This document shows, piece after piece, positions 1-64,000 of a stretch of 64,000 nucleotides of DNA. How positions within the stretch are numbered: the stretch's first letter is position 1; each line of letters begins with the position of its first letter. Position numbers and translations under genes: made by a program. The stretch spans positions 1,924,501 through 1,988,500 of the forward strand of contig NZ_CP111079.1 in assembly GCF_026278245.1 (NCBI RefSeq). Direction: 5' to 3'. This DNA is from Pontibacter kalidii (GTDB lineage Bacteria; Bacteroidota; Bacteroidia; Cytophagales; Hymenobacteraceae). The notes beneath the pieces were generated by a model, which was not told where the DNA came from, searched no databases, and saw only the letters and a list, made by a program, of their open reading frames with translations.

Positions 1-905
1 GGGAACTGAAGCGCATCCAAGGAATAAAAAAGGTGGAGATAATAGTAGGCAGCGCCTACCAACATCTACAAGAGCTGCAGACATGGCTGGAGCAGAATCC
101 AACGTATCGCCTGCACCAAAACCTCAGTGCGGAGGAGATGTGCCGGCTGATGCAGCGTTGTAGTGTAGCGGTCACTTCTGCCAGCGGCGTAGCGTACGAG
201 TATGCTTCGGTGGGCGGGTTGCTGTTTATACTTCAGACAGCGGATAACCAACAAGGGCTTTATACTTTCCTGACCCGAAACGTCCTGGCACAAAAGTATG
301 AGCAATTGCCCCAAAGTATAAATAATGAGTTTTCTAGTGCATTTGAGCAATTAGTTGCAACCCAGCGCCAGCATTTTGATGGAAAATCCGGAGAAAGGCT
401 ACGGGAAGTGTTCCGTAACTTGGCATTGGCGGCAAGCATATCCATGCGCGAAGCCACTGCCGACGACCTGCTGCTGCTCTTCGACTGGGCCAACGACCCT
501 GCGGTGCGCCGGCACTCCTTCAACCCGAATCCTATACTTTTAGAGAGCCACACCCGCTGGCTGCACACAAAGCTGGAAGATAAGCGAGCGATGCTTTATA
601 TTGCAGAAGCTGCAGGCCTGCCAGCGGCCCACATACGGTTCGAGCTGCAAGACGGCAAAGCGGTCATCAGTTATTTGATTGGCTCCAATTTTAGGGGGAA
701 AGGGCTTGGGCACGTGATCCTGCAGAAAGGCGTGGTAGCGTTGCTTCAACAAAACCCCGGGCTAGAACTGGTGGAGGGATTGGTACAAAAAGAGAATACG
801 GCTTCGGTCAGGGCCTTCGAGAAAGCTGGTTTCAGCTATGGCACACCCGATCCACAGTTTCCGCAAGCGCATCGGTTTGTGTTGCGCCCTCAACGAATAA
901 AGTAA
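1..905 (+). CDS. pseG: PseG-type UDP-sugar hydrolase fused to GNAT acetyltransferase (5' partial)
   Basis: The reading frame is open to the left edge of the window, so the start lies outside and only the last ~300 residues are seen. The first ~130 residues look like the C-terminal half of PseG (GT-B fold): a beta strand ending in VGSAY, then a CSVAVTSASGVAYEYAS stretch that matches the PseG nucleotide-binding loop. The last ~150 residues are a GNAT domain (start ISMREATADD, acetyl-CoA loop NFRGKGLG), as in PseH. Together these are two consecutive steps of pseudaminic acid synthesis: removal of UDP and N-acetylation at C4. The next gene is PseI, 8 bases on, which supports the pathway. Which acceptor the GNAT domain uses is inferred from context. 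Confidence 0.8.
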   Translation, partial: ELKRIQGIKKVEIIVGSAYQHLQELQTWLEQNPTYRLHQNLSAEEMCRLMQRCSVAVTSASGVAYEYASVGGLLFILQTADNQQGLYTFLTRNVLAQKYEQLPQSINNEFSSAFEQLVATQRQHFDGKSGERLREVFRNLALAASISMREATADDLLLLFDWANDPAVRRHSFNPNPILLESHTRWLHTKLEDKRAMLYIAEAAGLPAAHIRFELQDGKAVISYLIGSNFRGKGLGHVILQKGVVALLQQNPGLELVEGLVQKENTASVRAFEKAGFSYGTPDPQFPQAHRFVLRPQRIK

Positions 906-913
906 GTATAAAC

Positions 914-1957
914 ATGATTCAGGATATAACCATTGCGGGCCGTTTGGTTGGTCCAACACATAGGCCATTTATCATTGCAGAGATGTCGGGTAACCACAAC
1001 CACTCGCTGGAGCGGGCGCTGGCTATTGTGGATGCCGCCGCTGAGGCCGGTGCCGACGCTATCAAACTGCAAACCTATACCGCCGACACCATGACGCTGC
1101 CAGGTGCCTTTACCATTGAAGATGAAAATTCCCTCTGGAAAGGACGTGAGCTCTACGACCTCTACCAAGAAGCCTATACGCCCTGGGAATGGCACCAACC
1201 AATTTTTGAGCGAGCCAAACAACATGGCCTGATCGCCTTCTCCTCTCCTTTTGATGAGTCGGCTGTGGATTTCCTGGAAGAACTGGGGGCACCAGTGTAC
1301 AAGATCGCTTCTTTTGAAAACACGGACCATCCGCTTTTGCGTAAAGTAGCCGCTACAGGCAAACCGGTGATCATGAGCACAGGCGCCGCCACGCTGACCG
1401 AGTTGGACGAGGCTGTACGCGTATTGCGGGAGGCGGGCTGCGAGCAGTTTATACTTTTGAAATGCACCAGTACCTACCCTTCTACTCCGGCAAACACGAA
1501 CCTGGCTACTATTCCGCACATGCGTGCATTGTTTAACGTGCAGGTGGGGCTATCGGACCATACGATGGGTGTGGGAGCGGCTGTGGCTGCCGTAGCGTTG
1601 GGCGCAACGGTTATCGAAAAACACTTTACCTTGTTAAGAGCGGATGGTGGCGTAGATGCTGCTTTCTCGCTGGAGCCACAGGAACTGCAAGCGCTGGTGA
1701 TGGAGTCCGAAAGGGCGTGGCAGGCCCTGGGGCATGTACAGTATGGCGTGCAGCGCGCAGAAGAAAAAAGCCGCCTGTTCAAGCGATCGGTGTATGCAGC
1801 CAAAGACATCACTGCTGGTGAGGCACTTACCAAAGAGAACATCCGGGTGATACGGCCGGGCCTAGGCCTGGCACCCAAGCATTACGAGGAACTGCTGGGC
1901 AAGCCTGCCGCTGTAGCCATCAAAGCCGGCACGCCCCTTACCTGGGACATGGTGTAG
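914..1957 (+). CDS. pseI: Pseudaminic acid synthase PseI
   Basis: 347 residues, the usual length for the NeuB/PseI family. It condenses a 2,4-diacetamido-trideoxy-altrose with phosphoenolpyruvate to give pseudaminic acid in the cytoplasm. The N-terminal TIM barrel shows the family patterns FIIAEMSGNHNHS, ADAIKLQTY, FSSPFD and LLKCTSTYP, followed by GLSDHT and EKHFT. Residues ~285-347 form the C-terminal SAF (antifreeze-like) domain (ITAGEALTKENI, GKPAAVAIKAGTPL). The SGNHN form of the N-terminal motif and the PseG neighbour favour PseI over a sialic or legionaminic acid synthase. It follows pseG by 8 bases and precedes a glycosyltransferase-like gene by 3, so the three are probably one transcript. 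Confidence 0.9.
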   Translation: MIQDITIAGRLVGPTHRPFIIAEMSGNHNHSLERALAIVDAAAEAGADAIKLQTYTADTMTLPGAFTIEDENSLWKGRELYDLYQEAYTPWEWHQPIFERAKQHGLIAFSSPFDESAVDFLEELGAPVYKIASFENTDHPLLRKVAATGKPVIMSTGAATLTELDEAVRVLREAGCEQFILLKCTSTYPSTPANTNLATIPHMRALFNVQVGLSDHTMGVGAAVAAVALGATVIEKHFTLLRADGGVDAAFSLEPQELQALVMESERAWQALGHVQYGVQRAEEKSRLFKRSVYAAKDITAGEALTKENIRVIRPGLGLAPKHYEELLGKPAAVAIKAGTPLTWDMV

Positions 1958-1960
1958 CCC

Positions 1961-3238
1961 ATGGATAAGTGGTACGCCATCTACAGTAATATTCTTCACC
2001 TGCACTTCTCGGAAGGTTTTTATAAGCTTCCAGAAAGTGCCAAGGCAGCCGTTTCCCCTACCTCACCCGTAAAGCGCCTGCTTAAAATGGCAGGCTTTAC
2101 GTTGGTGCGCTTGATCGGGAATCTTTTTAAAAAGGTAGAGCGCCCGGAAAAGTTACACGGCAAAGTATGGCTCTACGTGGTCAGCCAGAACAATTACGAC
2201 AGCTTACACTTCCTGAAGGATGGTTTGCCGGATACGGTTTTCGTGGCGGGCCAGAGCAAGAACATTGGCACGTATAACCAGGCGGTGGAACGTATTTCGC
2301 TACGCCGCAAAATTTTATACTATCAAAAGTTTCTCCCGCTCTACTTTACATTCCTGAAGTATAAAAAACAGCGTACCCAACGCTTTGCAGATATACTTTA
2401 CGATGCCGTCGGCTTTTACGAAGTATACCTAACCAAGCTGCAGAAGTATAAACCGGCCGCCATCGTATTTGCCAATGATCACAACGCCGATGCGCGCGCG
2501 ATGCTGTTAGCAGCGAAAGCGCTGGGCATTAAAACAGTCTATATCCAGCATGCCAGCGTAAGTCCTATCTTCCCTCCGCTGGAGTATGACTTGAACCTGC
2601 TGGAGGGGCAGGATGCACTGGATAAGTATCAACTTTGCGGCCCCATAGCAGGGCGTGTTGCGTTGGTAGGCATGCCCAAAGCGGATGCTTTTGTACCATA
2701 CCGCAACCACAACCAAAGTATAGAACGCATTGGAATTGGCTGTAATTTGATGGATGACGTGACGGAGGTGGAGAAATTGGTAAAAGCCTTAGCCAAAAAG
2801 CTTCCGCAACTCAGCATCATCCTACGCCCCCACCCACGCGACAAGCGCAATTTCAGTAGATTAACAAGTATAAGTTCCAGCATCAGCCTCTCCGACAGCC
2901 GCACCATCCCCACGTTTGATTATCTGCGCCAGATAGATGTGCAGATCAGCGGTAACTCCGGCATCCACCTGGAGGCGGTGCTGCTGAATGTATGGTCTAT
3001 TTTTTACGACTTCAACCCGAAGCACAAGTTGGAAGATTATTACGGTTTTGTGCAGCACGGCCTGATAGAAACGGTGGAAGGTCCTGAAGAACTGATTCAG
3101 ATGCTGCAACAGTACTTGCTTGTTAAACCTGAGGTGTGTGATAGAGCGAGGTACTATAACGCGACTGTCGGAACAACTTACGATGGGCTTAGCGCTACAC
3201 TGGCTGTAAATTATATTGCCGATTTTCTTAAACATTAA
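1961..3238 (+). CDS. Putative GT-B type glycosyltransferase of surface glycan synthesis
   Basis: 425 residues starting three bases after the pseI stop, so translation is probably coupled. No signal peptide or clear membrane helix. Around residue 190 it has a Rossmann-type stretch, TVYIQHASVSPIFPP, resembling the nucleotide-sugar or CDP-polyol binding half of GT-B enzymes. Later comes IILRPHPRD, typical of capsule and teichoic-acid type GT-B transferases, then QISGNSGIHLEAVLL, the C-terminal donor-site helix region. Its place directly after pseI suggests it uses or attaches pseudaminic acid. This is inference; the acceptor is unknown. A UDP-GlcNAc 2-epimerase-like fold is an alternative. Confidence 0.6.
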   Translation: MDKWYAIYSNILHLHFSEGFYKLPESAKAAVSPTSPVKRLLKMAGFTLVRLIGNLFKKVERPEKLHGKVWLYVVSQNNYDSLHFLKDGLPDTVFVAGQSKNIGTYNQAVERISLRRKILYYQKFLPLYFTFLKYKKQRTQRFADILYDAVGFYEVYLTKLQKYKPAAIVFANDHNADARAMLLAAKALGIKTVYIQHASVSPIFPPLEYDLNLLEGQDALDKYQLCGPIAGRVALVGMPKADAFVPYRNHNQSIERIGIGCNLMDDVTEVEKLVKALAKKLPQLSIILRPHPRDKRNFSRLTSISSSISLSDSRTIPTFDYLRQIDVQISGNSGIHLEAVLLNVWSIFYDFNPKHKLEDYYGFVQHGLIETVEGPEELIQMLQQYLLVKPEVCDRARYYNATVGTTYDGLSATLAVNYIADFLKH

Positions 3239-3278
3239 TATATTGCTTTAGAATAATTTATATACCTGCCGCTCTGAA

Positions 3279-5072
3279 ATGCCTATGAACAAACTATTAC
3301 CATTTCTCCTCTCTTTCCTTCTAATCCTGCTAATTATTAACAATGCAAAAGCCCAAGGGCCAGGCAATTCGCTTAGTCTTGATGGCTACGATGGCTATGT
3401 ACTTAGTAGTACCTCAAACAGGGGCGTTACTAACCAGGTTACGGTAGAAGCTTGGGTCAAAACCACTGCGTATAAATACCAGTGGGTGGCAGGAAAGTAC
3501 GACAGGTATGGAGCTGAGCGGGGGTATCATCTGATTATAAAAGAAGGTAAAGCAGCATTTGCAGGACGAGACAACTCCGGTATATATAGAAACTCCGGTT
3601 ACTCTGCCGTAAATGTGAATGATGGGCAATGGCACCATCTTGCCGGAGTATGCGATGGCAAAAACTGGCTTATTTATGTAGATGGTATCCTCCAAAGCTC
3701 ACTTAAGACGGAGTATGCCAATACTAGTCTCGTGAACAATGCCCCCTTTGCCATTGGTAAATACTTTCTTGTTGATAATGAATACTACATAGGGCAAATA
3801 GACGAGGTAAGGGTTTGGAAAAAGGCACTGTCTGAAGAGGAAATAAGGCAAAATATGTGCTCCAAGTTGCCAGAGCCCCCTTCTGATCTGGTAGCCTATT
3901 TCAACTTTGATGATACAGGCACGAGAACTGTGAAAGACATCAGCAGCCTTCGATTAGATGGAGCGATACAAAACCAAAGTATCTCGGCTTCCTGGAAAAC
4001 CTCCGGTGCCCCGATAGGCGACAAAAGTGTTTACCGGTACCCCAAAAAATGGGATTCGTCTCTGGGGCTGGTTACCGACAAGGCTAATTTCTCTGTCGCA
4101 GGTGTTGACCCGGCAGTACAGGGTTTCCATTTGTATACGATCCAATCACCTCCTACCTCAACCAGCGGCATCAACTCCCCTGAGCAAGTAAAGGAGTACT
4201 ATGGCCTGTTTAAAGTAGGCGCGGCGGAGCAGAAGTATAAAGTACACTTCAGGCAGGCTGGCTCAGTTTGCGGCGGCGTTCTGTTCCGCCGTCAGGACAA
4301 CACCGCAGGCACCTGGAGCCAGGTAGCTGACACGGTAGCGTCTCCTCTTTTGCTTTATACCTCATCCGCTAACTACGGAGAGTTTGCCTTAACCCCTGTT
4401 ACCGCCTCCCCCATCTCCATCAGCGGCCCCGGCAGCGTATGTGCCGGATCTACAGCAACCCTCAGCGTTACAAACCCTGATCATGGGCAGATCGTGTGGA
4501 GCACCGGAGACAAGACTCCGGAGCTTACGGTCACAAAAAGCGGCACCTACTGGGCAGAGGTAACCATCCCCGACGGCTGTACTTCAAGAGATGAGCTAAC
4601 GGTTACGTTTGAAGAAGAACCTGGCATCCTGCTTCCAGGCGAGGCGTTTGTCTGTGATCGTGAACCCGTGCAGTTGGACGCCACCACAGAAGGCGCCACC
4701 TACAGCTGGAGCAACGGGCAGGAAACACCAAGTATAAGAGTTAGCGCACCAGGCATCTACACGGTTACTATTACGCGAGAGAACTGTGCCTATGTGAAAG
4801 ATATTGTCGTTTCCAGCGATGAATGCCCCATCATCCCCAACATCATCACGCCAAATGGCGATGGGAAAAATGATTCCTTTGTCGTAAACGGCGTGGTGGG
4901 GAATACACTGGAGTTGAAAATTTTTAACCGCTGGGGAAAATCTGTTTACCAATCCGACCGTTATGACAACAGCTGGTCGGCTGCCGAAGTACCGACTGGT
5001 GTATATTATTACCAGTTAACCAGCAGCCGCACCCAAAAAGTGTACAAAGGCTGGCTCGAAGTCATAAAATAA
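3279..5072 (+). CDS. Secreted LamG-domain protein with T9SS type B sorting domain
   Basis: 597 residues. An N-terminal signal peptide (basic start, hydrophobic run to ~24, cleavage after AKA) is followed by a LamG / concanavalin-like domain at ~30-200, with DGQWHHLAGVCDG and GQIDEVRVWKKALSEEE as in sugar-binding laminin G folds. Residues ~385-515 are two Ig-like repeats, each with a cysteine pair and an S-x-G-x-Y/T pattern. The last ~85 residues (PNIITPNGDGKNDSF, IFNRWGKSVY, PTGVYYYQL) are the gliding-motility-associated C-terminal domain used for export by the type IX system. It is probably a surface adhesin or glycan-binding protein. The start could also be the second ATG at 3285. Confidence 0.85.
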   Translation: MPMNKLLPFLLSFLLILLIINNAKAQGPGNSLSLDGYDGYVLSSTSNRGVTNQVTVEAWVKTTAYKYQWVAGKYDRYGAERGYHLIIKEGKAAFAGRDNSGIYRNSGYSAVNVNDGQWHHLAGVCDGKNWLIYVDGILQSSLKTEYANTSLVNNAPFAIGKYFLVDNEYYIGQIDEVRVWKKALSEEEIRQNMCSKLPEPPSDLVAYFNFDDTGTRTVKDISSLRLDGAIQNQSISASWKTSGAPIGDKSVYRYPKKWDSSLGLVTDKANFSVAGVDPAVQGFHLYTIQSPPTSTSGINSPEQVKEYYGLFKVGAAEQKYKVHFRQAGSVCGGVLFRRQDNTAGTWSQVADTVASPLLLYTSSANYGEFALTPVTASPISISGPGSVCAGSTATLSVTNPDHGQIVWSTGDKTPELTVTKSGTYWAEVTIPDGCTSRDELTVTFEEEPGILLPGEAFVCDREPVQLDATTEGATYSWSNGQETPSIRVSAPGIYTVTITRENCAYVKDIVVSSDECPIIPNIITPNGDGKNDSFVVNGVVGNTLELKIFNRWGKSVYQSDRYDNSWSAAEVPTGVYYYQLTSSRTQKVYKGWLEVIK

Positions 5073-5077
5073 CCATT

Positions 5078-6430
5078 TTGTACATCTACGATTATACCTT
5101 ACAACATTTCCACCTCCTCTACCCCAAGGCCACAGCGCTCAGCATTAACTATGGTATTGGCGGAGACTCCAAAATCAGCATAAAGAAATATGAGGGCAGC
5201 TTTTTTGAGAAGAAGCGCCCACGCCCGCAGCAGGTGTTCTGGAAGGAGTGGCGCGGCGAAAAGCTGCCTTTCTTTTTTGAGGAAGATGACCAGACCGAAC
5301 TGATCACCTACCACCCGGACGGCTCCGCAAGTATAAACTACGACATCATTGCCGGTGCTTTTTACCTGCTCAGTGGCTGGCAGGAGTACTATGGCCCGGA
5401 GCGCGACCGCTTTCACCGCTATACCTACAAGGCCAGCGTGCAGGCGAGGTATAACTTCATTACCAAACCGGTGGTAAACTATTATTTTGAGATGCTGCGC
5501 GAGGTGATGGAACGGGTGCACGGCGTGGACCTGCAGCACGACCACTGGGGCAACAACGGCATGGCCACCTGCCTTACCTGCGATGTGGACCGCCTGCACA
5601 GCGCCTGGCGCGTGGCGGGCAAACAGCTGCTGTTCCACGCCAAAGCCTTTGACCTGACGAAGCTATTGCTGCAGAAAGCCGTCGGCCGTGACGCCTGGGA
5701 CAACCTGCCGGAGGTGATGGCCACCGCCGAAAAGTATGGTGCCAGGGCTACATTCTTTTTCCTGTCCAGCAACCAGCGCTACAACGGCCACCCCAACGCG
5801 GACCATGACCTGACGAAACTCAGATACCAGCACCTGATGCAGAAGGTGTCTGACCGTGGGCATGAGGTGGCCCTGCACGGCAGCTTCGGCACGGCCAACG
5901 ACCTGGTGCAGCTGAAATCGGACCGCGGTAAGCTGGCGCAGCAGGCGCAGGGCAACCGCTTCCACTACCTCTGCTACCAGCCTGAAACCACGCCGCAGGT
6001 GCTGCAGCAAAGCAACCTCCACTACGACAGTACCCTGGGCTTCTCCGAGCACTTTGGCTTCCGCAATTCCTTCTGCCACCCTTTCTTTCCCTTCGATTTT
6101 CAGAACCGGCGGGCCCATACGTTCGTGGAACTGCCCCTGATGCTGATGGATGCCACGCTCTACGACATCAACTTTATGCACCTGGCCCCACGGGAAGCGC
6201 TGAAGAAAGTACAGCCGATGCTGCAGGAGGTTGATAAGTTCAGGGGACTGCTCACACTGCTTTGGCACAACGAGAACTACTCCAGGTATAACGAATACGC
6301 CGTGCCCAAGGGAGAACCCGGTTGGCGCGAGGTACTGGAAAAAATATTGCAGCAGCTGAAGGCTTCGGGCTCCGCTTTTTATACTTGTGCCGAGGCAGCC
6401 AATAGCGTCAAAGCCGGGTGCAACCAATAA
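5078..6430 (+). CDS. Polysaccharide deacetylase-like protein
   Basis: 450 residues, with a TTG start five bases after the previous stop; no in-frame ATG gives a full N-terminal domain. The first ~130 residues look like the small domain that often precedes deacetylase folds in Bacteroidota surface-glycan clusters. From ~165 the NodB-like barrel appears: CLTCDVDRLHS (metal-binding Asp-Asp motif in the form DVD), ARATFFFLSSN, then GHEVALHGSFGTAND (His motif), and a late LLTLLWHNENY with a conserved histidine. No signal peptide is seen, so it probably acts in the cytoplasm. Its place between a T9SS substrate and a flippase suggests a role in making or trimming the exported glycan. Substrate unknown. 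Confidence 0.7.
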   Translation: MYIYDYTLQHFHLLYPKATALSINYGIGGDSKISIKKYEGSFFEKKRPRPQQVFWKEWRGEKLPFFFEEDDQTELITYHPDGSASINYDIIAGAFYLLSGWQEYYGPERDRFHRYTYKASVQARYNFITKPVVNYYFEMLREVMERVHGVDLQHDHWGNNGMATCLTCDVDRLHSAWRVAGKQLLFHAKAFDLTKLLLQKAVGRDAWDNLPEVMATAEKYGARATFFFLSSNQRYNGHPNADHDLTKLRYQHLMQKVSDRGHEVALHGSFGTANDLVQLKSDRGKLAQQAQGNRFHYLCYQPETTPQVLQQSNLHYDSTLGFSEHFGFRNSFCHPFFPFDFQNRRAHTFVELPLMLMDATLYDINFMHLAPREALKKVQPMLQEVDKFRGLLTLLWHNENYSRYNEYAVPKGEPGWREVLEKILQQLKASGSAFYTCAEAANSVKAGCNQ

Positions 6431-6496
6431 CTAACAAGTAATAACCAACAACTAATACTCCGGATTTGCTATTTTTGCTGTTCACTCTTTAGCCCC

Positions 6497-7984: not shown

Positions 7985-8307
7985 TTGCTGGTTGTTGATT
8001 GTTGGTTGTCTGAATCAGGATTTTCAGAATTAAATGATGTACAGGATTCGTTCATTCATTCAGAGTTCTTTAACTCCCGAGTTCTCAAATATTAAAATAA
8101 AATGGCTTACTCCTATTGACGCTCTCGCTCGCCTCTGGCGAGTGTGAACTATCAGGCGGCGTCCCGCCGCTAATAATACTGCATAGAGTATAAAGGGGCC
8201 GGAGGCCACTCTATTACGCACACTCGCCAGAGGCGAGCGAGGGCATAACTTTTTAACTTTCTAACTTTCTAACTCTCTACCTCCCAAACCCTCTAACTCC
8301 TTAACTC
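7985..8307. other. Convergent intergenic region with repeats
   Basis: This 323-base gap separates the flippase and the aminotransferase, which converge on it. It starts with TTGATTG/TTGGTTG words and a TGAATCAGGATTTTCAG phrase, then holds a strong structured inverted repeat (8121-8244), and ends with CTAACT-type low-complexity repeats (about 8248-8307). No gene is seen. Confidence 0.7.
8121..8244. repeat. Structured inverted repeat with 26-base arms
   Basis: The left arm at 8121-8146 and right arm at 8219-8244 are complementary at 25 of 26 positions. Between the arms are two further hairpins: GGCGGCGTCCCGCCGC-type (about 8155-8170) and ATAGAGT...ACTCTAT enclosing a GGCC pair (about 8184-8214). 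There is no obvious target duplication and no coding sequence. It may be a miniature mobile element, a transcription barrier between the convergent genes, or a structured RNA end. Confidence 0.75.
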
Positions 8308-9429
8308 TCACCTATTCTGCTTAACATAATCTATCACATGCTGACAAATATAGGCCAGCTGGTCCTCCTTCAGCTCGGAGTGCAAAGGCAGCGACAGAGC
8401 GCTTTGGCTCAGCAGCTCCGCCACCGGCAACTCACCGGGCAGGTATCCGGCCAAAGTATACTTCTCTAGCAGGTGCAGCGGCTGCGGGTAATAAACCACG
8501 CTCGGGATAAAGTTATCGCTCAGGTGCTGCTGCAGCCCGTCGCGTAAGGCTGGCGCTACTTTTATGGTATACTGGTGGTAAGTATGCGAGCTGTAAGTGG
8601 CCCGCTGCGGAGCCTGCACCAGCTTGGTTTCCGCGAAGGCATTGTCGTAGAAACGGGCAATTTCCTCCCGCGCCTCGTTGTATTCGTCCAGGTACCTGAT
8701 CTTCACATCCAGCATGGCCGCCTGCAGGTTTTGCAGCCTGGCGCTAAAGGTATACTTACCGCCCATTCCATCCCTGGCGATCTGCTGCATACGCTCCGCC
8801 AGCTCCGCATCGCCGGTAAACACGGCCCCACCCTCCCCGAAGTCAGCCGAAGGTTTGGTCGGGAAGAACGAAGTATAGCCCATGTGTCCAATGGCCCCCG
8901 CCCTCCACTCTTTTTCATCCTTGTCTACATAAACCGCTCCCAGCGCCTGTGCGACATCCTCCAGCAGCCACAGGTTATACTTTTGTGCCAGCTCCGTCAG
9001 CTCCTGCATCGGAGCACACTGTCCAAACAAATGCACTGGCACCATGGCTGCGGTTGCCGCTGTTATCATCCGTTCTGCAGCCGCCGGGGAAAGTGTAAAG
9101 GTGCGAGAATCCACATCCGCAAAAACAGGCTTTAAGTTCAGCTTCATGATAACCTCAGGCAAAGCCTCATAACAGAAGGCAGGAAGTATAACCTCGGCAC
9201 CGGCAGGCAGTTGTAGCGCCAGCAGGGCCAGCTCGAGGGCATCAGTACCACGTGCACAGGGTATAGCATGCTGCACCTGCTGGAAAGTTGCTATACTTCT
9301 GGCAAACTCCTGTTGCTGTGGCCCCTCCTCCATACTCATGCTGGCCATCACGGTGCTGAAGGCGGCATCCAGTTCGGGCTTCAACTTGGCATACTGGGCT
9401 TTGGTGGCAGTCATTTTGATATCTTCCAT
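8308..9429 (-). CDS. DegT/DnrJ/EryC1 family PLP-dependent sugar aminotransferase
   Basis: 373 residues from the chosen ATG at 9429; the frame opens further upstream, to 9495, but family members start near this methionine (MEDIKMTATKAQYAKLKPEL). It shows CARGTDALELAL, AEVILPAFCYEALPE, LLEDVAQALGA and SFFPTKP, where the lysine is the expected PLP Schiff base, followed by DFGEGGAVFT. These enzymes transfer an amino group from glutamate to a keto-sugar nucleotide. The style of the N-terminus resembles FdtB/WecE enzymes more than PseC, so I do not call it PseC. It lies on the opposite strand to the pseudaminic acid genes but close by, consistent with surface glycan synthesis. Confidence 0.85.
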   Translation of the reverse strand: MEDIKMTATKAQYAKLKPELDAAFSTVMASMSMEEGPQQQEFARSIATFQQVQHAIPCARGTDALELALLALQLPAGAEVILPAFCYEALPEVIMKLNLKPVFADVDSRTFTLSPAAAERMITAATAAMVPVHLFGQCAPMQELTELAQKYNLWLLEDVAQALGAVYVDKDEKEWRAGAIGHMGYTSFFPTKPSADFGEGGAVFTGDAELAERMQQIARDGMGGKYTFSARLQNLQAAMLDVKIRYLDEYNEAREEIARFYDNAFAETKLVQAPQRATYSSHTYHQYTIKVAPALRDGLQQHLSDNFIPSVVYYPQPLHLLEKYTLAGYLPGELPVAELLSQSALSLPLHSELKEDQLAYICQHVIDYVKQNR

Positions 9430-9588
9430 GGGCTGTTCTTCTTGGAGTGATGCTGGGCAAAGATAGGCATTGCGGCGGGCAATTCTGAGCTGCAACCCTA
9501 CAGACTATCGGCTGCCTACCGCGCTGCATGCCTGCAACCCCTTCTGGACCGAGGCCGTTTACCTTAGCAGTACCAAACCTATGTTGCT

Positions 9589-10254: not shown

Positions 10255-10290
10255 AAACCTCAGCAGGGATGAAGTATGGCTGAGGCTTTT
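10254..10290. terminator. Hairpin terminator, probably bidirectional
   Basis: AAAACCTCAGC and GCTGAGGCTTTT form a stem with A and T tracts on both sides. It sits just after the lipoprotein stop and close to the 3' end of the convergent ftsE. Confidence 0.75.
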
Positions 10291-10328
10291 GGGGTTCGGG
10301 GTGTTATATAATTATAGCACTGCCAGGC

Positions 10329-12750: not shown

Positions 12751-13176
12751 AGCCGTGGATCAGCAGCAGCTAGCAAGTATAGCCAGGTTCCAGTGGAAGG
12801 GAACATCGGCCAGGAAAGTATAACTCAAGTATAAAGTATGGCACTTCGAGCCAGTCGGGTTGCAAACCCGCACCAGCGAGAGGATGAAGTATAGCAGCAA
12901 GTAAAGCCACAAGCGGACGCTTGCGCCGGAAAGAACAAACAGCAAGTATCGCAAGGAGGCCTACTTGTGAAGGAGAAGCTGATACTGCTTGCCTAAAAGA
13001 TCCCTCCAGTACGTCATGGAAGGAAAGACTAGTGCTTTACCATATTTAGCAAGTATAAAGTACAAACCCGGCAAGTATAGCAGTATGGCTTCCGTAAGTA
13101 CAGCCCAAGTACAGAAAGGAAAGAACTACAACCACACCCCCTGCTTCTCTCCCAAACTGAGTTTACATCAAAATAA

Positions 13177-20774: not shown

Positions 20775-20841
20775 TATAGCCAAGTATAAACAAGAAAGGC
20801 GAGCCGCAGTGGCTCGCCTTTCTTGTTTATACTTGGCTATA
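20775..20841. terminator. 31-base perfect hairpin between convergent genes
   Basis: TATAGCCAAGTATAAACAAG...GGCGAGCC pairs perfectly with its complement across a GCAGT loop. It serves both the EEP lipoprotein (plus) and dnaN (minus). The stem contains a complete AAGTATAA/TTATACTT inverted pair. Confidence 0.93.
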
Positions 20842-22079: not shown

Positions 22080-23777
22080 TTAAAAGCGTTCATACTTACG
22101 CTTGCGCAGGTAGTAACGTGCCACGCCAAACAGCCCCAGCAGCACGATCGGGGCCACCAGGTTCAGCAGCTGCCAATAGGTTTTCTCTTCCCGTACGCGC
22201 ACTTTATCCAGCGGCCGCAGGGCAATCTCCTTACTGCGCACATTTATCAGCCCTTCTGCATCCAGCAGGTAATGGATGGTGTTCAGGGCCAGTTCCTTGT
22301 TGGCAAAGGTCATGTTGTTAAACCTGTCGAAGCCCAGTTCATAGGCCTGACCGGTTCGCGGGTTCACATCGTTTCGTACCAGGTCGCCATCCGAGAAAAC
22401 AGCGATTTTGGTCTCCACGCCCTGCTCCTGCACCTTGGTATTGTCCACGCCCTCAGGTGCCCTGCGGTTTCGGAAAAGCGAGGTAAACTTGCCCTCCAAA
22501 AGATAGCCCACCGGCTGCTGCCCTGCCTGGTACTGCTGCGGGTTCACCTCCATACGGGCCTCTTCCAGCGTCAGGGGCACCGGTGCCTCCATGATGCGGG
22601 AATAGGTAGACGTATACACTAGCGGCGTTTTACGGATCCCATCTGCTTTCACGGTATCCATGGTGCTCACAAACTTGGAATAAACAGCATCCAGGTTACG
22701 CGTGATGGGGTGCTTGGCAAAATTGTTCAGCAGCGGAAAAAAGCGCCAGTTCACCATCTCCGTCTGCGGCTTGTCGCCCATGTAGCCCGTTACCAGCGGT
22801 ATAAAGCCTGAGTTCAGGTCCATGATCAGGTTTGGATTGAGGCGCACGCCGTAGCGGAACAGCAGGTCGTCGAGGTTCAGGTTATAGGGCAGTGCAAACA
22901 TTCCCCCTGCCCCCACGCTGTCCATGTTGGCATTCATCGGGTCCACGAAGAACACCGCTTTGCCGCCTTTCATGATGAACTGGTCGATTTTATACTTGTC
23001 CGCCTCCGAAAAAGCGCTTACCGGCTTGGCCACGATGATCAGATCAAGCTTCTCCAACGAGGCCATCGGTAACTGGGCCAGCTCGCCCCGGGCCACGCGG
23101 TAGAACTCCCCCAGTGATCCCACCAGATCTGCCACCTGCTGCTGCTCCAGCTCCCCATGCCCTTCGATATAGCCAATGATCTTGCCGCCCTGGAAAGCCA
23201 GCTTACGGATTGCCGTGGCCATTTCATACTCCACGCCCTCCACCGATTGGTTCAGGCGCTCATCCGAAGAGGCAGCCAGGTTACCCTTCAGCAGGTTCAC
23301 CGCCGTTTCTTTGCCGTTATACCTCACCACTGCCCCCGGGAACACCAGCCGCTCCACCTGCTTGCCATCCTCGGTAGCCCGCAGGTTGGTGGGCATGATG
23401 CCTTTTTGCGCCAGCGAAGTATAAAACTCATTCCGCTGCTGCTCGTCCGTAATCTCGGTCGGGTCAATGAAGTTGTAGCGCAGGTTACCGCCAGCGTAAA
23501 TGCGGAACTCGTCCAGCGTCTCGCGCACCGACTGCTGCAGCCGTTTAAAGCCCGCCGGGAAATCGCCCTCCAGGTATACATCCACCACTACCTCCTGCTG
23601 CAGGTTGCCCAGCATCTGCTTGGTAACCGGGGCAATGGTATAGCGTTTATCCTCCGTCAGGTCGAGGCGGAAAAAGTAATTTGCCGCCAGTATGTTCAGC
23701 AATATAATGCCCGCCACCGAGGCCAGGAAAACTAAAATATCGCTGCCGCGTTTGCTCTTGCTCTGCTCGGTTACCAT
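22080..23777 (-). CDS. gldG: Gliding motility ABC transporter auxiliary protein GldG
   Basis: 565 residues. One membrane helix near the N-terminus (ILVFLASVAGIILLNILAANYFF), a large extracytoplasmic part of the ABC_transp_aux type (IGYIEGHGELEQQQVADLV, GKAVFFVDPMNAN), and a second helix at the C-terminus (LVAPIVLLGLFGVARYYL) followed by a basic tail. This is the GldG architecture. With GldA and GldF it forms an ABC system required for gliding in Flavobacterium johnsoniae. The start overlaps the end of gldF by seven bases, so translation is coupled. Confidence 0.92.
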   Translation of the reverse strand: MVTEQSKSKRGSDILVFLASVAGIILLNILAANYFFRLDLTEDKRYTIAPVTKQMLGNLQQEVVVDVYLEGDFPAGFKRLQQSVRETLDEFRIYAGGNLRYNFIDPTEITDEQQRNEFYTSLAQKGIMPTNLRATEDGKQVERLVFPGAVVRYNGKETAVNLLKGNLAASSDERLNQSVEGVEYEMATAIRKLAFQGGKIIGYIEGHGELEQQQVADLVGSLGEFYRVARGELAQLPMASLEKLDLIIVAKPVSAFSEADKYKIDQFIMKGGKAVFFVDPMNANMDSVGAGGMFALPYNLNLDDLLFRYGVRLNPNLIMDLNSGFIPLVTGYMGDKPQTEMVNWRFFPLLNNFAKHPITRNLDAVYSKFVSTMDTVKADGIRKTPLVYTSTYSRIMEAPVPLTLEEARMEVNPQQYQAGQQPVGYLLEGKFTSLFRNRRAPEGVDNTKVQEQGVETKIAVFSDGDLVRNDVNPRTGQAYELGFDRFNNMTFANKELALNTIHYLLDAEGLINVRSKEIALRPLDKVRVREEKTYWQLLNLVAPIVLLGLFGVARYYLRKRKYERF

Positions 23778-28964: not shown

Positions 28965-29016
28965 AAGTATAAAAAAGTCCTCCTGCGGTCTAGCGCAGGA
29001 GGACTTTTTTATACTT
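28965..29016. terminator. Perfect terminator with paired AAGTATAA ends
   Basis: AAGTATAAAAAAGTCCTCCTGCG pairs perfectly with its complement around a short loop. It sits between the convergent mlaF and nucleoside transporter genes. AAGTATAA and TTATACTT form the base of the stem. Confidence 0.93.
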
Positions 29017-30331: not shown

Positions 30332-30390
30332 TTATACTTGGTTGAAAGAGAAAATCGGCCAAAATTAAGCCGAATATCTTATAAAACAAA

Positions 30391-33712: not shown

Positions 33713-33777
33713 ATGGTATGATGTTGGCAAAGACTCTGTACTTGCCCCTGCTGTAGTTTACTGTTAGTTTTATACTT

Positions 33778-39658: not shown

Positions 39659-40321
39659 GGAAGGTGAGATGTGTAAAGGTTTAGTTTAGTAATCCAGGTG
39701 TATTGGGAGATTTGCACAACCAAGGCTGATTTCGATGTTCTGCTTTCAATTGTACAAAATAAGGCTTGTGTAATACTAATTTTCAGATATTTCTAATACA
39801 TACTTTTTCAGAAGAAGGTTATTATGTTGATATTCAACCGCTTACCAAAACAAACTCCTTGATTGGTAAAAATTTTAGCGTGACTTATACTTTAGGATAG
39901 GTCGTGGGAAAAGTCACGGGGTGATCCTTTCCGCGCATGTCTGCCGCCGTTCTTCGCTTCCGGGAGGTGAGCGGAAAGGAACTTATACTTGCGTTATATT
40001 CTATACTTTATACTTTCTCTGGGGCAACTCTCCTGACTTAAGTCCTTTTTATGATATCGAGTTTGTAACTTGATTGGCTTCTAAAGCCATACTTTATACT
40101 TGGGTTATACTTGCTGGTTTATACTTCATACCGATCGCTGGCGCGGGTTTGCAACCCGTGCCTTCTTTAATGTCGGGTTTGTAACCCGACTGGCTCACAG
40201 AGCCATACTTCATACTTGGGCTATACTTGAATTGCTTCCGCTTCCCGCAACTGGAACTTAGCTATCCTTACTAGCCTCTGTTCATCCACGGCTTTACAAC
40301 TAGCTCTTTTAACCTCCGACT

Positions 40322-40550: not shown

Positions 40551-40908
40551 GGAAAAGGAGCAAGTATAAACTCCCTCTCCTGTTTTTAGGAGAGGGCTGG
40601 GGAGAGGAGAAATCCCCTCCTCGGAGGGGCTGGGGTGGGTTTATACTTTGGGGAGCAAGTCATGAATACCAGCAGCAACGAAACTTATACTTCAGCAGCA
40701 GCAAATACAGACTCCCCTCCTTGAACTCCGAGAACGCGAATTCGAAGATAGCGAGCGTAGCGCTAAGAGCTAGGGGTGCTTGGATCCGGCAGCGCAAGTA
40801 TAACTGAGGAGGTCAATCAGATGTGTTTATTATCATGGTCGTACTTTCAAACAACCAAAAGCTAATATGATTAGTATTTCTAATTATATTAGCACATATT
40901 TGTAAGCG

Positions 40909-55823: not shown

Positions 55824-55826
55824 TCC

Positions 55827-57602: not shown

Positions 57603-58042
57603 TTACCCTCGCCAGGATTAAACATAAATAAAACATTAGATAATTTATATTTATCACACCTAGGCACTCTTGCAAGGTCCACTTGATTTTACTGGTGCTC
57701 CTTATGCTAAAAACAACACGCAGGCTTCCAGGCTTGCCTTCAGCAACTAACAGCTTCTGCTGATGCAAGGGGCTAATTTGGGGCTCTTACGTAGGATTAT
57801 ACAAAAATCATCCTCATATTTGAGCCATAATTTTAAACATGAAACCACTTCTCTATAACATCTCTCCTCCGCGCCTTATTTTACCTGCACAGTAGCCTGA
57901 ATCGCTACGTCTAGCTGTTTCTCTCTTGGCAAAAACTTCTTTTCTCCCTTTTGAGCGGCTAGTCCTGTTGCTCAGGTTGTTGTGCCTGTTCATCAAGCGG
58001 GGCTCCACCTTGAATTCTGTGGTAGTAAGAACATCCGAAATA
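57603..58042. other. Intergenic region without recognised features
   Basis: 440 bases between the SulP gene and the EamA gene. Low-GC stretches at 57630-57660 and 57800-57860. An open frame from 57926 extends the EamA gene upstream but lacks family sequence. No terminator hairpin is obvious. Confidence 0.5.
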
Positions 58043-58900
58043 ATGCATCATCTTTCAAATAGAAAATTCATCATTCCTGCCATACCGGCGGTCCTGTTGG
58101 CAATGATTAGTGTGCAGGGCGGGGCTTCCATTGCCAAGCACCTTTTCCCTGTGTTAGGCGCAAGTGGCACGGCCTCGCTGCGGATCTGCTTTGCAGCCCT
58201 CATCTTACTGGTCGTCTTCCGGCCCAATCTGCGTGCGCTAAACACGAAGCAATGGCTATACAGCCTGGCGTACGGCACCTGCCTGGGAGCCATGAACTTG
58301 GTGTTCTACTTTGCCATCAAGCGTATACCGCTTGGCCTGGGCGTCACGCTTGAATTCACCGGCCCCCTTGTCTTAGCGCTGCTGGGCTCCAGAAGGCTGC
58401 TTGATCTGCTTTGGGTGCTGCTGGCCTGTTTGGGAATAGTATTGATTGCCCCCTGGCAGAATAACAATGTAGACCTGCTGGGTACCGCGCTGGCAGTAGG
58501 GGCGGGAGCCTTGTGGGCAGGCTACATCGTGTTGGGCGGAAAGCTATCCAGGATTATGAAAGGCGGCGATGCGGTAGCTGTAGGAATGCTTTTTGCCGCT
58601 GCCTTTGTCGTGCCATTCGGGGCTTTGAGCGGTGATCTGGCGGCAGTAAATGGTCCCCTGCTGTTAATAGGGGTTGCCGTAGCCCTCCTAACAAGTGCCC
58701 TTCCGTATACCCTAGAGATGGGTGCCTTACGGCAACTTTCCCCCAAACACTTCGGCATTCTGATGAGCCTGCACCCAGCCTTTGCCGCACTCTCTGGTTT
58801 GCTCTTCCTGGAGGAGTACCTAAGCCTGACACAATGGGTTTCGGTCTTCTGCGTGATCACGGCAAGTGCGGGAGCTACTTATTTTACCAAGAAGGCCTGA
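58043..58900 (+). CDS. EamA-family exporter (RhtA-like)
   Basis: 285 residues from the ATG at 58043, which starts at the first membrane helix (KFIIPAIPAVLLAMISVQGG). About ten helices. ATSLRICFAAL-type motif GTASLRICFAALILLVVF, VFYFAIKRIPLGLGVTLEFTGPLVLALL and HPAFAALSGLLFLEE are typical of EamA/RhtA transporters of threonine and homoserine. The substrate is inferred only from family. Confidence 0.82.
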   Translation: MHHLSNRKFIIPAIPAVLLAMISVQGGASIAKHLFPVLGASGTASLRICFAALILLVVFRPNLRALNTKQWLYSLAYGTCLGAMNLVFYFAIKRIPLGLGVTLEFTGPLVLALLGSRRLLDLLWVLLACLGIVLIAPWQNNNVDLLGTALAVGAGALWAGYIVLGGKLSRIMKGGDAVAVGMLFAAAFVVPFGALSGDLAAVNGPLLLIGVAVALLTSALPYTLEMGALRQLSPKHFGILMSLHPAFAALSGLLFLEEYLSLTQWVSVFCVITASAGATYFTKKA

Positions 58901-59144
58901 TAAACGGAGCCTGGCCGGCTCTTGCTGATTATTCCGGAAGTATCCATCCTTATAGATGGAGGATTCCCATCCTGTTGGGCAGCAAGTATAACTGAAACCA
59001 AGAGGCTCAAAAGGCTGTAGGATTAGCGGCTGCTTACAGGCATAGCCAGGTTAAAATTGCAGGAGGCACGGCTAAGGAAGTATGTGTATCAAGAAATTCG
59101 CAGGAGGAAAATTCCGGAAAGGGGTGTCCGATACGACAGGCATG

Positions 59145-62633: not shown

Positions 62634-62915
62634 AGGTGCTGCATTATGTGGTTGTTATTCGCAATAATATAACTCAGTACTCCTTACGTGTAGCGCTCTA
62701 CTCCATGTATATGCTAAACGCTGGCCTAAGGTTATTTTCGGTGATTTATACTTGCCGTAAGCTTGCCGCTTATACTTTTCCTATGCCACTTCACAACCCA
62801 CCCCGGCGCCTGGAGGAGCATCGTCTGTTATACTTATTACCTTTGGATCGGGCTATACTTTTACAGCATTTATGAATCGCGCCCTGGATTTTACTTACTG
62901 TCTGAGAGTCGAATC
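62634..62915. other. Short intergenic region with clustered TATACTT words
   Basis: 282 bases. Four TATACTT words lie between about 62748 and 62860. The open frame on the plus strand here is not convincing. Confidence 0.5.
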
Positions 62916-63815
62916 TTACTCCGCCGTAGGCGCAGGTTTTACAGGCGGGTTTTGCTTGTTTTTCAGTTCTATACCGCTAAGGACACGGCTTACGTGGTTT
63001 GCCCTGGAAATCATATCATAGGTTTCCGTCACCATTCCCTGATCGATCGCCTCTTTAAAGCGCAGCAGTTGTTGAATATAGGCATCGAGTGCTTCGGATA
63101 CATGGCCGGCGTTTTGCCTGAAGATGGGGGCCCACATGGCCGGCGAGCTCTTTGCAAGCCTTACGGTGGAGGCAAATCCGCTCCCTGCCAGGTTAAAGAT
63201 GCTTTTCTCGTCTTTTTCTATCTCCAGTACCGTAAGCCCCAAGGCAAAGGAAGTAATATGGGAAAGGTGCGAGACGAAGGCGAGGTGCCGGTCGTGCGCA
63301 CGTGCGTCCATATGAACGGTTTCCATCTTTAGGCAGGCAAACAACTCTTCTGCTGTTTCTACAGCATGGGCATCGCTGTCTGCGGCGTTGCAGATGATAT
63401 TGACCTTATTATCGAAGAGCCCGTGGTGCGCCGCGCCGGGGCCGGTATTCTCCGTACCTGCAATGGGGTGGCAGGCTACAAACTGCTTCCGGCGGGGATG
63501 TTTCTCCACTGCCTGGCAGATATGTTCCTTCGTGGACCCAACATCCAGTATGATTGTCTTATCGCTGGCAAGTTCTAAAAGACTTAAAAGAATGGCGGGA
63601 GCTACATCCACCGGCGTGGCCAGGATGATCAGGTCACATCCCCGGGCCAGGTCTGACAAACTGCCTTCTTCCTGTAAGATGCCTGCCTGTTTTGCAACCC
63701 GAACATGCTCCGGATTGCTGTCTGTGCCTATTACGCTGCTAGCAAAGCCCCTTTGCCTCAGGTCCAATGCCACGGAGCCTCCAATGAGCCCCAATCCTAC
63801 GATTCCGATTTTCAT
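62916..63815 (-). CDS. tyrA: Prephenate dehydrogenase
   Basis: 299 residues. NAD-binding IGIVGLGLIGGSVAL, GTDSNPEHV, ILATPVDVAP, VGSTKEHI, ACHPIAGTENTG with the catalytic His, and HLAFVSHLSHITSFAL are typical TyrA. It oxidatively decarboxylates prephenate to 4-hydroxyphenylpyruvate for tyrosine. A Pro-rich tail (QNPPVKPAPTAE) follows. No aromatic neighbours are in view. Confidence 0.94.
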   Translation of the reverse strand: MKIGIVGLGLIGGSVALDLRQRGFASSVIGTDSNPEHVRVAKQAGILQEEGSLSDLARGCDLIILATPVDVAPAILLSLLELASDKTIILDVGSTKEHICQAVEKHPRRKQFVACHPIAGTENTGPGAAHHGLFDNKVNIICNAADSDAHAVETAEELFACLKMETVHMDARAHDRHLAFVSHLSHITSFALGLTVLEIEKDEKSIFNLAGSGFASTVRLAKSSPAMWAPIFRQNAGHVSEALDAYIQQLLRFKEAIDQGMVTETYDMISRANHVSRVLSGIELKNKQNPPVKPAPTAE

Positions 63816-63961
63816 TTCTTTTCTGTTTTGATGTTCTATAATGATTTATTCAGCTTAATGCTATAACAACCCTTAGTCAGTGCGCAGGAAGCCGTTATAC
63901 TTTAACTCAGGTGTTCTCTGTTCCTGCTTTTCCTGCTCTTTTTCAATCCTGTTGCTAAACA

Positions 63962-63990
63962 AAAAAGAGTCCGCCGGTTGGGGACTCTTT
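63962..63990 (-). terminator. Terminator of a minus-strand gene beyond the right edge
   Basis: AAAGAGTCC and GGGACTCTTT form the stem; on the minus strand a TTTTTTG tract follows. Its gene starts outside the window. Confidence 0.75.
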
Positions 63991-64000
63991 CTAGGTAATG

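What the first reader, a model, noticed from the sequence alone, without database searches (positions are those of the whole stretch)
1..64000. Octamer AAGTATAA / TTATACTT is massively over-represented across the window
By eye I counted about 100 copies of AAGTATA or its complement against about eight expected for any heptamer on two strands, and about 60 full AAGTATAA/TTATACTT against about two expected. Copies occur in genes of every type, in spacers and in terminators, on both strands (about 45 and 59 for the heptamer). Inside genes it forces use of the ATA isoleucine codon (as AGT ATA or TTT ATA CTT), which argues that the DNA word is selected, not the protein. Known parallels are DNA uptake signals (Neisseria, Pasteurellaceae), HIP1 in cyanobacteria and Chi or KOPS-type oriented words. 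The role here is open.
Basis: partly seen in the sequence, partly recalled or inferred. Interest (0 to 1): 0.85.

Follow-up and report, generated by a model that had tools for sequence, protein, structure and literature searches.

The report
Clade-specific DNA signal words in Pontibacter
The chromosome of this Pontibacter bacterium is sprinkled with thousands of copies of one short DNA word, and sister species use different spellings of it, much like the self-recognition tags that some other bacteria use when they take up DNA, but here in another phylum and with no sign of the pili that carry those known systems.

Summary
AAGTATAA occurs 64 times in the window (1.45 expected) and 5,271 times in the 5.05-Mb genome, against 112 for the reversed word. 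The host is a Pontibacter. Of 50 Pontibacter genomes I word-bearing, with clade-specific spellings: AAGTATAA (20), AGGTATAG (12), AACTATAG (4), two spellings together (3); 11 have little or none. Sampled other genera of the order show no comparable excess. AAGTATAA sites are conserved 2-4 times above background in genomes with that spelling, but below background in 22 of 27 others; AAGTATAA and AGGTATAG replace each other in place. Words are sparser on second contigs, densest between genes, without consistent orientation, and often fused into palindromes. Word-poor genomes are about 1.1 Mb larger. This matches DNA-uptake-sequence dialects of Neisseriaceae, but no convincing pilus/secretion ATPase was found. 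Best reading: an uptake-type self-recognition signal spread by biased uptake and recombination through a pilus-free route. Uptake and the receptor remain unshown; two receptor candidates failed.

The parts
226..267 (-). two AAGTATAA copies (226, 260)
314..321 (+). AAGTATAA
904..911 (+). AAGTATAA
1449..1456 (-). AAGTATAA
2357..2364 (+). AAGTATAA
2444..2451 (+). AAGTATAA
2866..2873 (+). AAGTATAA
4233..4240 (+). AAGTATAA
4730..4737 (+). AAGTATAA
5329..5336 (+). AAGTATAA
6379..6386 (-). AAGTATAA
6777..6784 (-). AAGTATAA
7589..7596 (+). AAGTATAA
7783..7790 (+). AAGTATAA
8454..8463 (.). full palindrome AAGTATACTT (two overlapping heptamers)
8975..8982 (-). AAGTATAA
9184..9191 (+). AAGTATAA
10542..10549 (+). 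AAGTATAA
12816..12834 (+). two AAGTATAA copies 11 bases apart (12816, 12827)
13051..13058 (+). AAGTATAA
18659..18666 (+). AAGTATAA
20782..20789 (+). AAGTATAA, inverted pair with 20827
20827..20834 (-). AAGTATAA, inverted pair with 20782
22990..22997 (-). AAGTATAA
23417..23424 (+). AAGTATAA
26822..26829 (-). AAGTATAA
28104..28111 (-). AAGTATAA
28965..28972 (+). AAGTATAA, inverted pair with 29009
29009..29016 (-). AAGTATAA, inverted pair with 28965
30332..30339 (-). AAGTATAA
30428..30435 (-). AAGTATAA
33252..33261 (.). full palindrome AAGTATACTT
33770..33777 (-). AAGTATAA
34709..34716 (+). AAGTATAA
35751..35758 (-). AAGTATAA
36132..36139 (-). AAGTATAA
36271..36278 (-). AAGTATAA
37587..37594 (-). 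AAGTATAA
39885..39892 (-). AAGTATAA
39983..40015 (-). two AAGTATAA copies (39983, 40008)
40094..40126 (-). cluster of three AAGTATAA copies (40094, 40105, 40119)
40562..40569 (+). AAGTATAA
40641..40648 (-). AAGTATAA
40685..40692 (-). AAGTATAA
40796..40803 (+). AAGTATAA
42289..42296 (+). AAGTATAA
42872..42879 (+). AAGTATAA
43628..43635 (-). AAGTATAA
43800..43807 (+). AAGTATAA
43957..43964 (-). AAGTATAA
45070..45077 (+). AAGTATAA
46590..46597 (-). AAGTATAA
48113..48120 (-). AAGTATAA
50767..50774 (-). AAGTATAA
51976..51983 (-). AAGTATAA; next copy is 7 kb away
58984..58991 (+). AAGTATAA
60835..60842 (+). AAGTATAA
62746..62777 (-). two AAGTATAA copies (62746, 62770)
62828..62835 (-). AAGTATAA
63895..63902 (-). 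AAGTATAA

Best explanation
The word is a self-recognition signal of the DNA-uptake-sequence type. A DNA-binding receptor of Pontibacter prefers DNA that carries the word. DNA of close kin is therefore taken up and recombined more often, and every copy that arises by mutation in tolerant sequence tends to spread into other cells (biased uptake plus recombination, a molecular drive). Because no single copy is needed by the cell, the receptor can change specificity: the words are then re-spelled in place or fade, which gives clade dialects, two-dialect genomes and loss. The route is not a type IV pilus; it may resemble the pilus-free competence described in Riemerella (outer-membrane proteins, periplasmic helix-hairpin-helix protein, ComEC). 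Shown here: abundance, dialects, site conservation that depends on the dialect, in-place re-spelling between two spellings, sparseness on second contigs, lack of consistent orientation, dyad-symmetric overlaps, absence of convincing pilus ATPases, presence of ComEC and a helix-hairpin-helix protein. Inferred: that uptake is the process, that the spread is a drive, and that a dimeric or two-sided receptor reads the palindromes.
For: Abundance: 0.45-1.47 octamers per kb in the 20 AAGTATAA genomes; Neisseriaceae uptake words are reported at 943 to nearly 6,000 per genome (PMC3630211, section 11). Dialects follow a nine-protein tree. AAGTATAA sites are kept 2.0-4.0 times more often than AT-rich background in all 20 AAGTATAA genomes and 2.2-3.8 times in the three mixed ones; in the other 27 genomes the ratio is 0-0.96 in 22 and 1.07-1.86 in five. 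In 20 same-spelling pairs, covering all three spellings, words are kept more often than background in 20 of 20, by factors of about 1.07 to 3.9. AAGTATAA sites read AGGTATAA or AGGTATAG in 534 of 3,152 aligned site-by-genome cells of AGGTATAG genomes, 426 being gapped; 69 of 321 unique sites read AGGTATA in at least one such genome. Exact copies exceed a word-masked Markov model 42-fold in G000, one-mismatch copies 3.4-fold. Second contigs are poorer: 0.97 against 0.054 per kb, 0.52 against 0.16, 0.80 against 0.05. Intergenic 2.61 against coding 0.59 per kb. Overlapping dyad pairs occur in all three dialects, as in Simonsiella muelleri (PMC3630211). ComEC in 50 of 50; a 304-346 aa helix-hairpin-helix protein in 49 of 50. 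Each of five word-poor lineages has larger genomes than its word-bearing sister group, as expected if self-directed transformation removes foreign DNA. G020, the one genome where that helix-hairpin-helix gene looks broken and where ComEC carries a stop, has the second-lowest density of its dialect and is the largest word-bearing genome.
Against: No uptake or transformation was tested, and the searches gave no report of competence in Pontibacter. No receptor was found: DUF5689 proteins (22 of 50, not in G000) and a barrel-lipoprotein pair (15 of 50, not in G000, G016 or G011) do not track the word. ComEC and the helix-hairpin-helix gene are open in all 11 word-poor genomes, so they do not explain presence or loss. 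ComEC also looks split in G038, which is very dense in its word, and carries a stop in G040. G001 has open ComEC and helix-hairpin-helix frames and yet the lowest density of its dialect. The second contig of G001 still holds 26 copies in 160 kb against 2 of a control word. Rare genes carry the word more densely than core genes (1.8 against 1.3 per kb, only 32 kb of rare genes), so age of residence alone does not set density. The two closest AACTATAG genomes keep words barely above background (0.52 against 0.49). In-place re-spelling between AAGTATAA and AACTATAG is weak (26 of 1,091 cells). Genome-size differences can have other causes, and only five lineages are independent.
Confidence: 0.6

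Rival explanations
1. Chromosome-binding signal: thousands of sites for a nucleoid-type or chromosome-maintenance protein whose specificity drifted between clades.
For: Chromosome rich and second contigs poor; palindromic 10-mers favoured, which suits a dimeric binder; conserved single sites.
Against: Changing or losing a specificity with thousands of working sites should be costly, yet there are three spellings and five word-poor lineages. Counts are overdispersed rather than regular (variance to mean 1.48 in 2-kb bins). Density is highest where sequence is least constrained, which suits passive accumulation.
Confidence: 0.15
2. Repair- or conversion-based drive inside the cell: an enzyme acting at near-matches (as very-short-patch repair acts at some methylation sites; recalled) keeps converting them into the word, and clades carry enzymes of different specificity.
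For: One-mismatch copies are in excess, above all at the last two positions; orthologous sites often differ by single substitutions; related clades differ sharply.
Against: Such an enzyme should act on plasmids too, and the second contigs are poorer in the word in 3 of 3 genomes looked at, though in G001 not free of it. No methylase was looked for, and I know of no repair system that makes an eight-base word (recalled).
Confidence: 0.12
3. Recombination or segregation word of the Chi or KOPS type.
For: Very abundant octamer on the chromosome; Chi words differ between bacterial species (stated in PMC3630211, section 11). AGGTATAG shows a modest bias to the G-rich strand (183 against 133, p = 0.006).
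Against: Orientation relative to GC skew is weak and goes both ways: 560 against 634, 183 against 133, 145 against 163 for the three spellings; a first count in G000 alone gave 250 against 206. Loss in 11 of 50 congeners is hard to square with a housekeeping role.
Confidence: 0.04
4. Packaging signal: a gene-transfer agent or similar particle packages DNA near the word, giving the same drive without uptake of naked DNA.
For: Would explain drive, dialects and sparse plasmids without pili (reasoning only).
Against: No such particle was searched for, and I know of none in Pontibacter (recalled); sites as dense as one per kb would give little packaging choice.
Confidence: 0.04
5. Mobile repeat or compositional artefact.
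For: Some copies sit in tandem clusters.
Against: Flanks of the 64 copies show almost no shared sequence beyond one base on either side; 47-fold over the reversed word in the whole genome; aligned orthologous sites in same-spelling pairs differ by substitutions far more often than by gaps.
Confidence: 0.01

Closest known systems
DNA uptake sequence (DUS) dialects of Neisseriaceae (PMC3630211: abstract, passages and section 11 seen)
   Same: Thousands of copies of a short word per chromosome, clade-specific spellings that follow the species tree, a genome with two spellings, one-mismatch copies beside exact ones (excess here), overlapping dyad pairs, a short core common to all spellings, and preference for permissive and intergenic sequence. 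Low density in acquired islands is reported for Neisseriaceae (PMC7371117, passages).
   Different: Different phylum; unrelated word of 7-8 bases (10 as palindrome) instead of 10-12; no convincing type IV pilus ATPase in 50 genomes, hence no evident place for a ComP-type pilin receptor; uptake not demonstrated.
Uptake signal sequences of Pasteurellaceae (recalled; PMC12616744 seen only in a search listing)
   Same: Genome-wide short word linked to self-DNA preference.
   Different: Longer extended motif (recalled), pilus-based uptake; here dialects lie within one genus and no pilus machinery was found.
Pilus-free competence of Riemerella anatipestifer (PMC8459023: abstract, passages, sections 19 and 21 seen)
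   Same: Same phylum, no pilus homologs reported, ComEC and a helix-hairpin-helix protein required; Pontibacter has genes of both kinds.
   Different: The parts that I saw describe no uptake word. The outer-membrane pair is not a conserved part of Pontibacter: only a distant relative in 15 of 50 genomes.
HIP1 of cyanobacteria (recalled)
   Same: Very abundant octamer in and between genes.
   Different: HIP1 keeps one spelling across a wide group (recalled); here the spelling changes within a genus.
Chi and KOPS words (recalled)
   Same: Over-represented octamers.
   Different: Those are oriented; this one is not consistently.

Membership tests
DNA uptake sequence (DUS/USS) | Word far above expectation, spread over the whole chromosome, both strands, genes and spacers | tested here: met
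DNA uptake sequence (DUS/USS) | Clade-specific dialects consistent with the species tree | tested here: met
DNA uptake sequence (DUS/USS) | Rare on foreign or secondary DNA | tested here: met
   3 of 3 second contigs poorer (74 of 74, 160 of 204 and 60 of 116 kb read); the one of G001 is only about threefold poorer
DNA uptake sequence (DUS/USS) | DNA with the word is taken up or transformed preferentially | not testable with these tools
   needs an uptake assay
DNA uptake sequence (DUS/USS) | Type IV pilus machinery with a word-binding minor pilin, as in Neisseriaceae | tested here: not met
   T2SSE ATPase family: weak matches at E <= 0.001 in 50 of 50, over the cut-off in 3 of 50 by at most one bit, about 60 of 370 positions in ORFs near 650 aa; pilins and secretins not searched
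DNA uptake sequence (DUS/USS) | Core competence genes present | tested here: inconclusive
   ComEC matches 50 of 50, 304-346 aa helix-hairpin-helix protein 49 of 50, both also in the 11 word-poor genomes; DprA and ComF not searched
Chi / KOPS | Orientation bias along replication | tested here: not met
   560:634, 183:133, 145:163 by GC skew; GC skew used as stand-in for replichore
HIP1 | One invariant palindromic octamer (recalled) | tested here: not met
   three spellings within one genus
Mobile repeat (REP, MITE) | Shared sequence beyond the word, copies inserted as units | tested here: not met
   flanks nearly uninformative; sites in same-spelling pairs differ mainly by substitutions
Restriction-modification site | Methylated by a resident enzyme | not testable with these tools
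   no methylome; enzymes not searched

The most novel reading that the evidence does not exclude
A self-versus-foreign DNA recognition system new to Bacteroidota as far as I know: a pilus-free uptake receptor, still unidentified, that reads a 7-8-base word or its 10-base palindrome, has changed its specificity at least twice within one genus, exists in two versions in some species, and whose loss goes with genomes about 1 Mb larger, so that the word records the history of bacterial sex and of genome cleaning in the group.
Probability: 0.5. Interest if true: 0.92.

Novelty: new variant of a known kind. Interest (0 to 1): 0.87.

Why it matters
Uptake words are known to me (recalled) only from Neisseriaceae and Pasteurellaceae, where they ride on type IV pili. 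A parallel system in Bacteroidota, without a convincing pilus ATPase, would be an independent origin of self-recognition in DNA uptake and would point to an unknown sequence-specific receptor. The genus offers about 50 sequenced species with three spellings, mixed genomes and several losses: a natural experiment on whether directed DNA uptake keeps genomes small and isolates species. It also gives a word that could be tried at once in transformation tests.

Tried and rejected
Receptor hunt. (1) DUF5689 (family of a Riemerella competence protein): 22 of 50 genomes; a short form (frames of 413-450 aa) in 12, all word-bearing, but only 1 of the 20 AAGTATAA genomes, and not G000; of four upstream neighbours scanned three are SusD-like: rejected. 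(2) Outer-membrane barrel profile from five flavobacterial loci (A1): a barrel-plus-lipoprotein pair in 15 of 50 genomes, the same 15 with a Pontibacter profile: 13 word-bearing and two word-poor, not found in G000, G016 or G011: rejected. In one search only 18 or 19 candidates per genome were scored. (3) comEC neighbourhoods (20 kb) of 20 genomes: no gene seen that separates word-bearing from word-poor.

Another uptake-like word in a Chitinophagales contig (L108, CACCATTC) proved to be mostly a local 7-base tandem repeat. The TATATATA excess of G035 weakens under a third-order model and I do not count it as a dialect. Regular spacing: not found. Orientation: the weak bias in G000 (250:206) was not upheld in the larger set.

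Literature: nine searches. The listings shown hold no paper on an uptake word in Bacteroidota or on this word in Pontibacter; for only 20 of 44, 15 of 27 and 20 of 805 papers were listed, and subscription journals and preprints are mostly not held, so this is not proof of absence. The one paper naming both Pontibacter and natural transformation (PMC8565304, passages) is about SOS regulators.

Not tested: DprA, ComF, pilins, secretins, methylases, AddAB/RecBCD, gene-transfer-agent genes (genome search exhausted).
Full report
Observation. AAGTATAA occurs 64 times in the window against 1.45 in shuffles; AAGTATA 107 times against 8.3 by a second-order model. It, or for k = 9 its extension, is the top word at k = 7 to 9. 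Around the 64 copies only the base after the word (A in 37, C in 17) and, weakly, the base before it are informative; further flanks are not shared. In the whole genome (two contigs, 4.98 Mb and 74 kb) there are 2,681 + 2,590 copies, against 51 + 61 for the word read backwards.

Organism. GMP synthase of the window (13207-14742) is 98% identical to that of Pontibacter flavimaris, and the next best hits are Pontibacter.

Dialects. AAGTATAA counts in 50 genomes of the genus run from 204 to 7,030, with reversed-word controls of 80 to 336. I fetched the guaA region (about 20 kb; 13 kb for G029) from all 49 other genomes and looked for the leading words in each. Twenty genomes, counting G000, use AAGTATAA; twelve use AGGTATAG; four use AACTATAG; three (G013, G015, G045) carry AAGTATA and AACTATA together. 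G049, counted as AAGTATAA, also shows some AACTATA. Eleven show little (G036, G017, G047, G027, G014, G035, G041, G033, G008, G029, G037). Of these G017 keeps a 4.8-fold excess of AAGTATAA over its control, G041 a weak related word (CTATACC), and several others a two- to four-fold excess. A tree of nine concatenated proteins puts the twelve AGGTATAG genomes in one clade and the seven AACTATAG and mixed genomes in another. Whole-genome counts agree: ARSTATAG 8,431-10,474 in the four AACTATAG genomes, 3,373-5,733 in the twelve AGGTATAG genomes, 513-2,208 in the eleven word-poor ones (controls 388 to 787 over all 50). The sets were defined together.

Range. ARSTATAR in a sample of 390 genomes of the order: 17 word-bearing Pontibacter genomes reach 4.9 to 15.8 times the reversed pattern and three word-poor ones 1.1 to 2.0. 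The 64 genomes of other genera of the family stay at or below about 1.25, and the other 306 at or below about 2.4 (highest in a 1.2-Mb genome, G087). The Rufibacter outgroup locus has no excess. This survey can only see these spellings. A free word search of 60 single loci outside Pontibacter, some only 5 kb long, found only simple, codon-like or local repeats and one modest 9-mer (L053) that I did not follow.

Anatomy. In 21 stretches of the chromosome (464 kb) 222 octamers lie in predicted genes (0.59 per kb), 222 between genes (2.61 per kb) and 12 on boundaries; 117 run with and 105 against the gene. Gene calls come from a simple scorer of my own. In the guaA regions of the 39 word-bearing genomes the seven-letter word has 1.26 copies per kb in genes found at 40 or more of the 50 loci, 2.7 in variable genes, 1.8 in rare ones (32 kb) and 5.0 between genes. 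So the words collect where constraint is weak. Exact words exceed a word-masked second-order model 456 to 10.9 in G000, and the 24 one-mismatch forms together 876 to 256, mostly through the last two positions. A1, T4, A5, T6 and A7 are common to the three spellings. Orientation by GC skew is weak and inconsistent between spellings. Counts in 2-kb bins are overdispersed. Overlaps that make a perfect 10-base palindrome are frequent in every spelling: AAGTATACTT 45, AGGTATACCT 34, AACTATAGTT 50 in the sets examined, which contain orthologous loci. The completing triplet is 2.8, 6.3 and 12 times its base rate; it is the most favoured triplet for AGGTATA and AACTATA, whereas after AAGTATA the triplets AAN are favoured more. 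Overlapping dyad pairs of uptake words are reported in Simonsiella muelleri and were taken there to hint at dimeric recognition (PMC3630211, section 11).

Replicons. AAGTATAA per kb on the main contig and on the second contig: G000 0.97 and 0.054 (whole second contig), G001 0.52 and 0.16 (160 of 204 kb; uneven, and still 26 against 2 for a control word), G002 0.80 and 0.05 (60 of 116 kb). That the second contigs are plasmids is inferred from size and separateness. A purely mutational bias would hardly spare them.

Evolution of single sites. In aligned guaA regions, AAGTATAA sites of AAGTATAA genomes are kept in other such genomes 2.0 to 4.0 times more often than AT-rich control 8-mers; in the mixed genomes 2.2 to 3.8 times. 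In the remaining 27 genomes the ratio is 1.07 to 1.86 in five (G031 1.86, G017 1.36, G029 1.19, G030 1.12, G039 1.07) and 0 to 0.96 in 22. The sequence is thus not conserved for its own sake; it is kept where the matching spelling is in force. In 20 same-spelling pairs (12 AAGTATAA, 5 AGGTATAG, 3 AACTATAG) words are kept above background in every pair, by 1.07 to 3.9, least in the closest pairs; one pair rests on 3 sites. In AGGTATAG genomes the aligned AAGTATAA sites read AGGTATAA in 384 and AGGTATAG in 150 of 3,152 site-by-genome cells, AAGTATAA in 184, with a gap in 426; in the other direction 150 of 1,994 read AAGTATAA. Cells are not independent; by unique site 69 of 321 show AGGTATA in at least one AGGTATAG genome, and 65 show AAGTATA. 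Re-spelling between AAGTATAA and AACTATAG is much weaker (26 of 1,091 cells as AACTATAA).

Machinery. ComEC matches in 50 of 50 genomes. The secretion/pilus ATPase family gives weak matches in 50 of 50 and passes its cut-off in 3 of 50, by at most one bit, over about 60 of 370 positions in ORFs near 650 aa, which I read as unrelated nucleotide-binding proteins; so no pilus of the kind that carries known uptake-word receptors is evident. The helix-hairpin-helix family matches in 50 of 50, its best hits lying in 750-816 aa ORFs; beside those, 49 of 50 genomes show an open frame of 304-346 aa with such repeats, with a hydrophobic N-terminal stretch in those printed, like the periplasmic competence protein of Riemerella (PMC8459023, section 19). 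In G020 that gene shows only frames of 87 and 75 aa and ComEC carries a stop. G020 has 0.46 octamers per kb, second lowest of its spelling after G001 (0.45, whose two genes are open), and at 5.5 Mb is the largest word-bearing genome. ComEC also looks split in the word-rich G038 and carries a stop in G040; draft errors are possible. Two receptor candidates suggested by the Riemerella work do not track the word.

Genome size. Word-poor genomes average 5.7 Mb (n = 11) and word-bearing ones 4.6 Mb (n = 39; Mann-Whitney p = 3.5e-6, not corrected for descent); each of five word-poor lineages is larger than its word-bearing sister group, by only 0.1 Mb in the case of G017. Sizes are the rounded ones of the tool. 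Within the AAGTATAA genomes density falls with size only as a trend (Spearman -0.42, p = 0.06).

Judgement. The pattern fits DNA-uptake-sequence dialects in nearly every respect that I could test, in a phylum and in genomes without evidence of the usual pilus. I take an uptake-type self-recognition signal as most likely (0.6), with a chromosome-binding signal and a repair-type drive as main rivals. Uptake preference, receptor and competence itself are not shown.

Noticed in passing
window 47000-59000: Only 4 of the 64 octamers in 12 kb, with a 7-kb gap (51984-58983) over genes for a sulfatase, an FGE-type sulfatase-modifying factor, a sulfate permease and transporters; GC is the same as elsewhere. 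Possibly recently acquired DNA.
   Followed up: partly
genus-wide (G000-G049): The 11 word-poor genomes are about 1.1 Mb larger on average than the 39 word-bearing ones, in the same direction in all five lineages.
   Followed up: partly
L292 and L232 (G020): A helix-hairpin-helix competence-like gene and comEC both look broken in the same genome.
   Followed up: partly
L160 (second contig of G000): Its own repeated words, ACTTATTA 21 and AATTAATA 20 copies in 20 kb.
   Followed up: no
L135, L162, L220 (G035): Excess of TATATATA/CTATATA, weaker under a third-order model; may be another spelling or plain AT tracts.
   Followed up: partly
AGGTATAG genomes, guaA region: Same-strand words spaced by multiples of six bases, that is tandem arrays.
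   Followed up: no
L261-L275: A patchy pair of an outer-membrane barrel (about 860 aa) and a lipoprotein-like protein of about 380 aa, distantly like a flavobacterial competence pair, in 15 of 50 genomes.
   Followed up: partly
L108: Local array of a 7-base repeat (CACCATT-type) in a Chitinophagales contig.
   Followed up: yes
window 33-9495: Surface-sugar gene cluster with an acetyltransferase, NeuB, a flippase and an aminotransferase, plus a lectin-like protein with a type IX secretion signal domain at 3279-5072.
   Followed up: no
window 33778-36012: Phytochrome-type histidine kinase.
   Followed up: no
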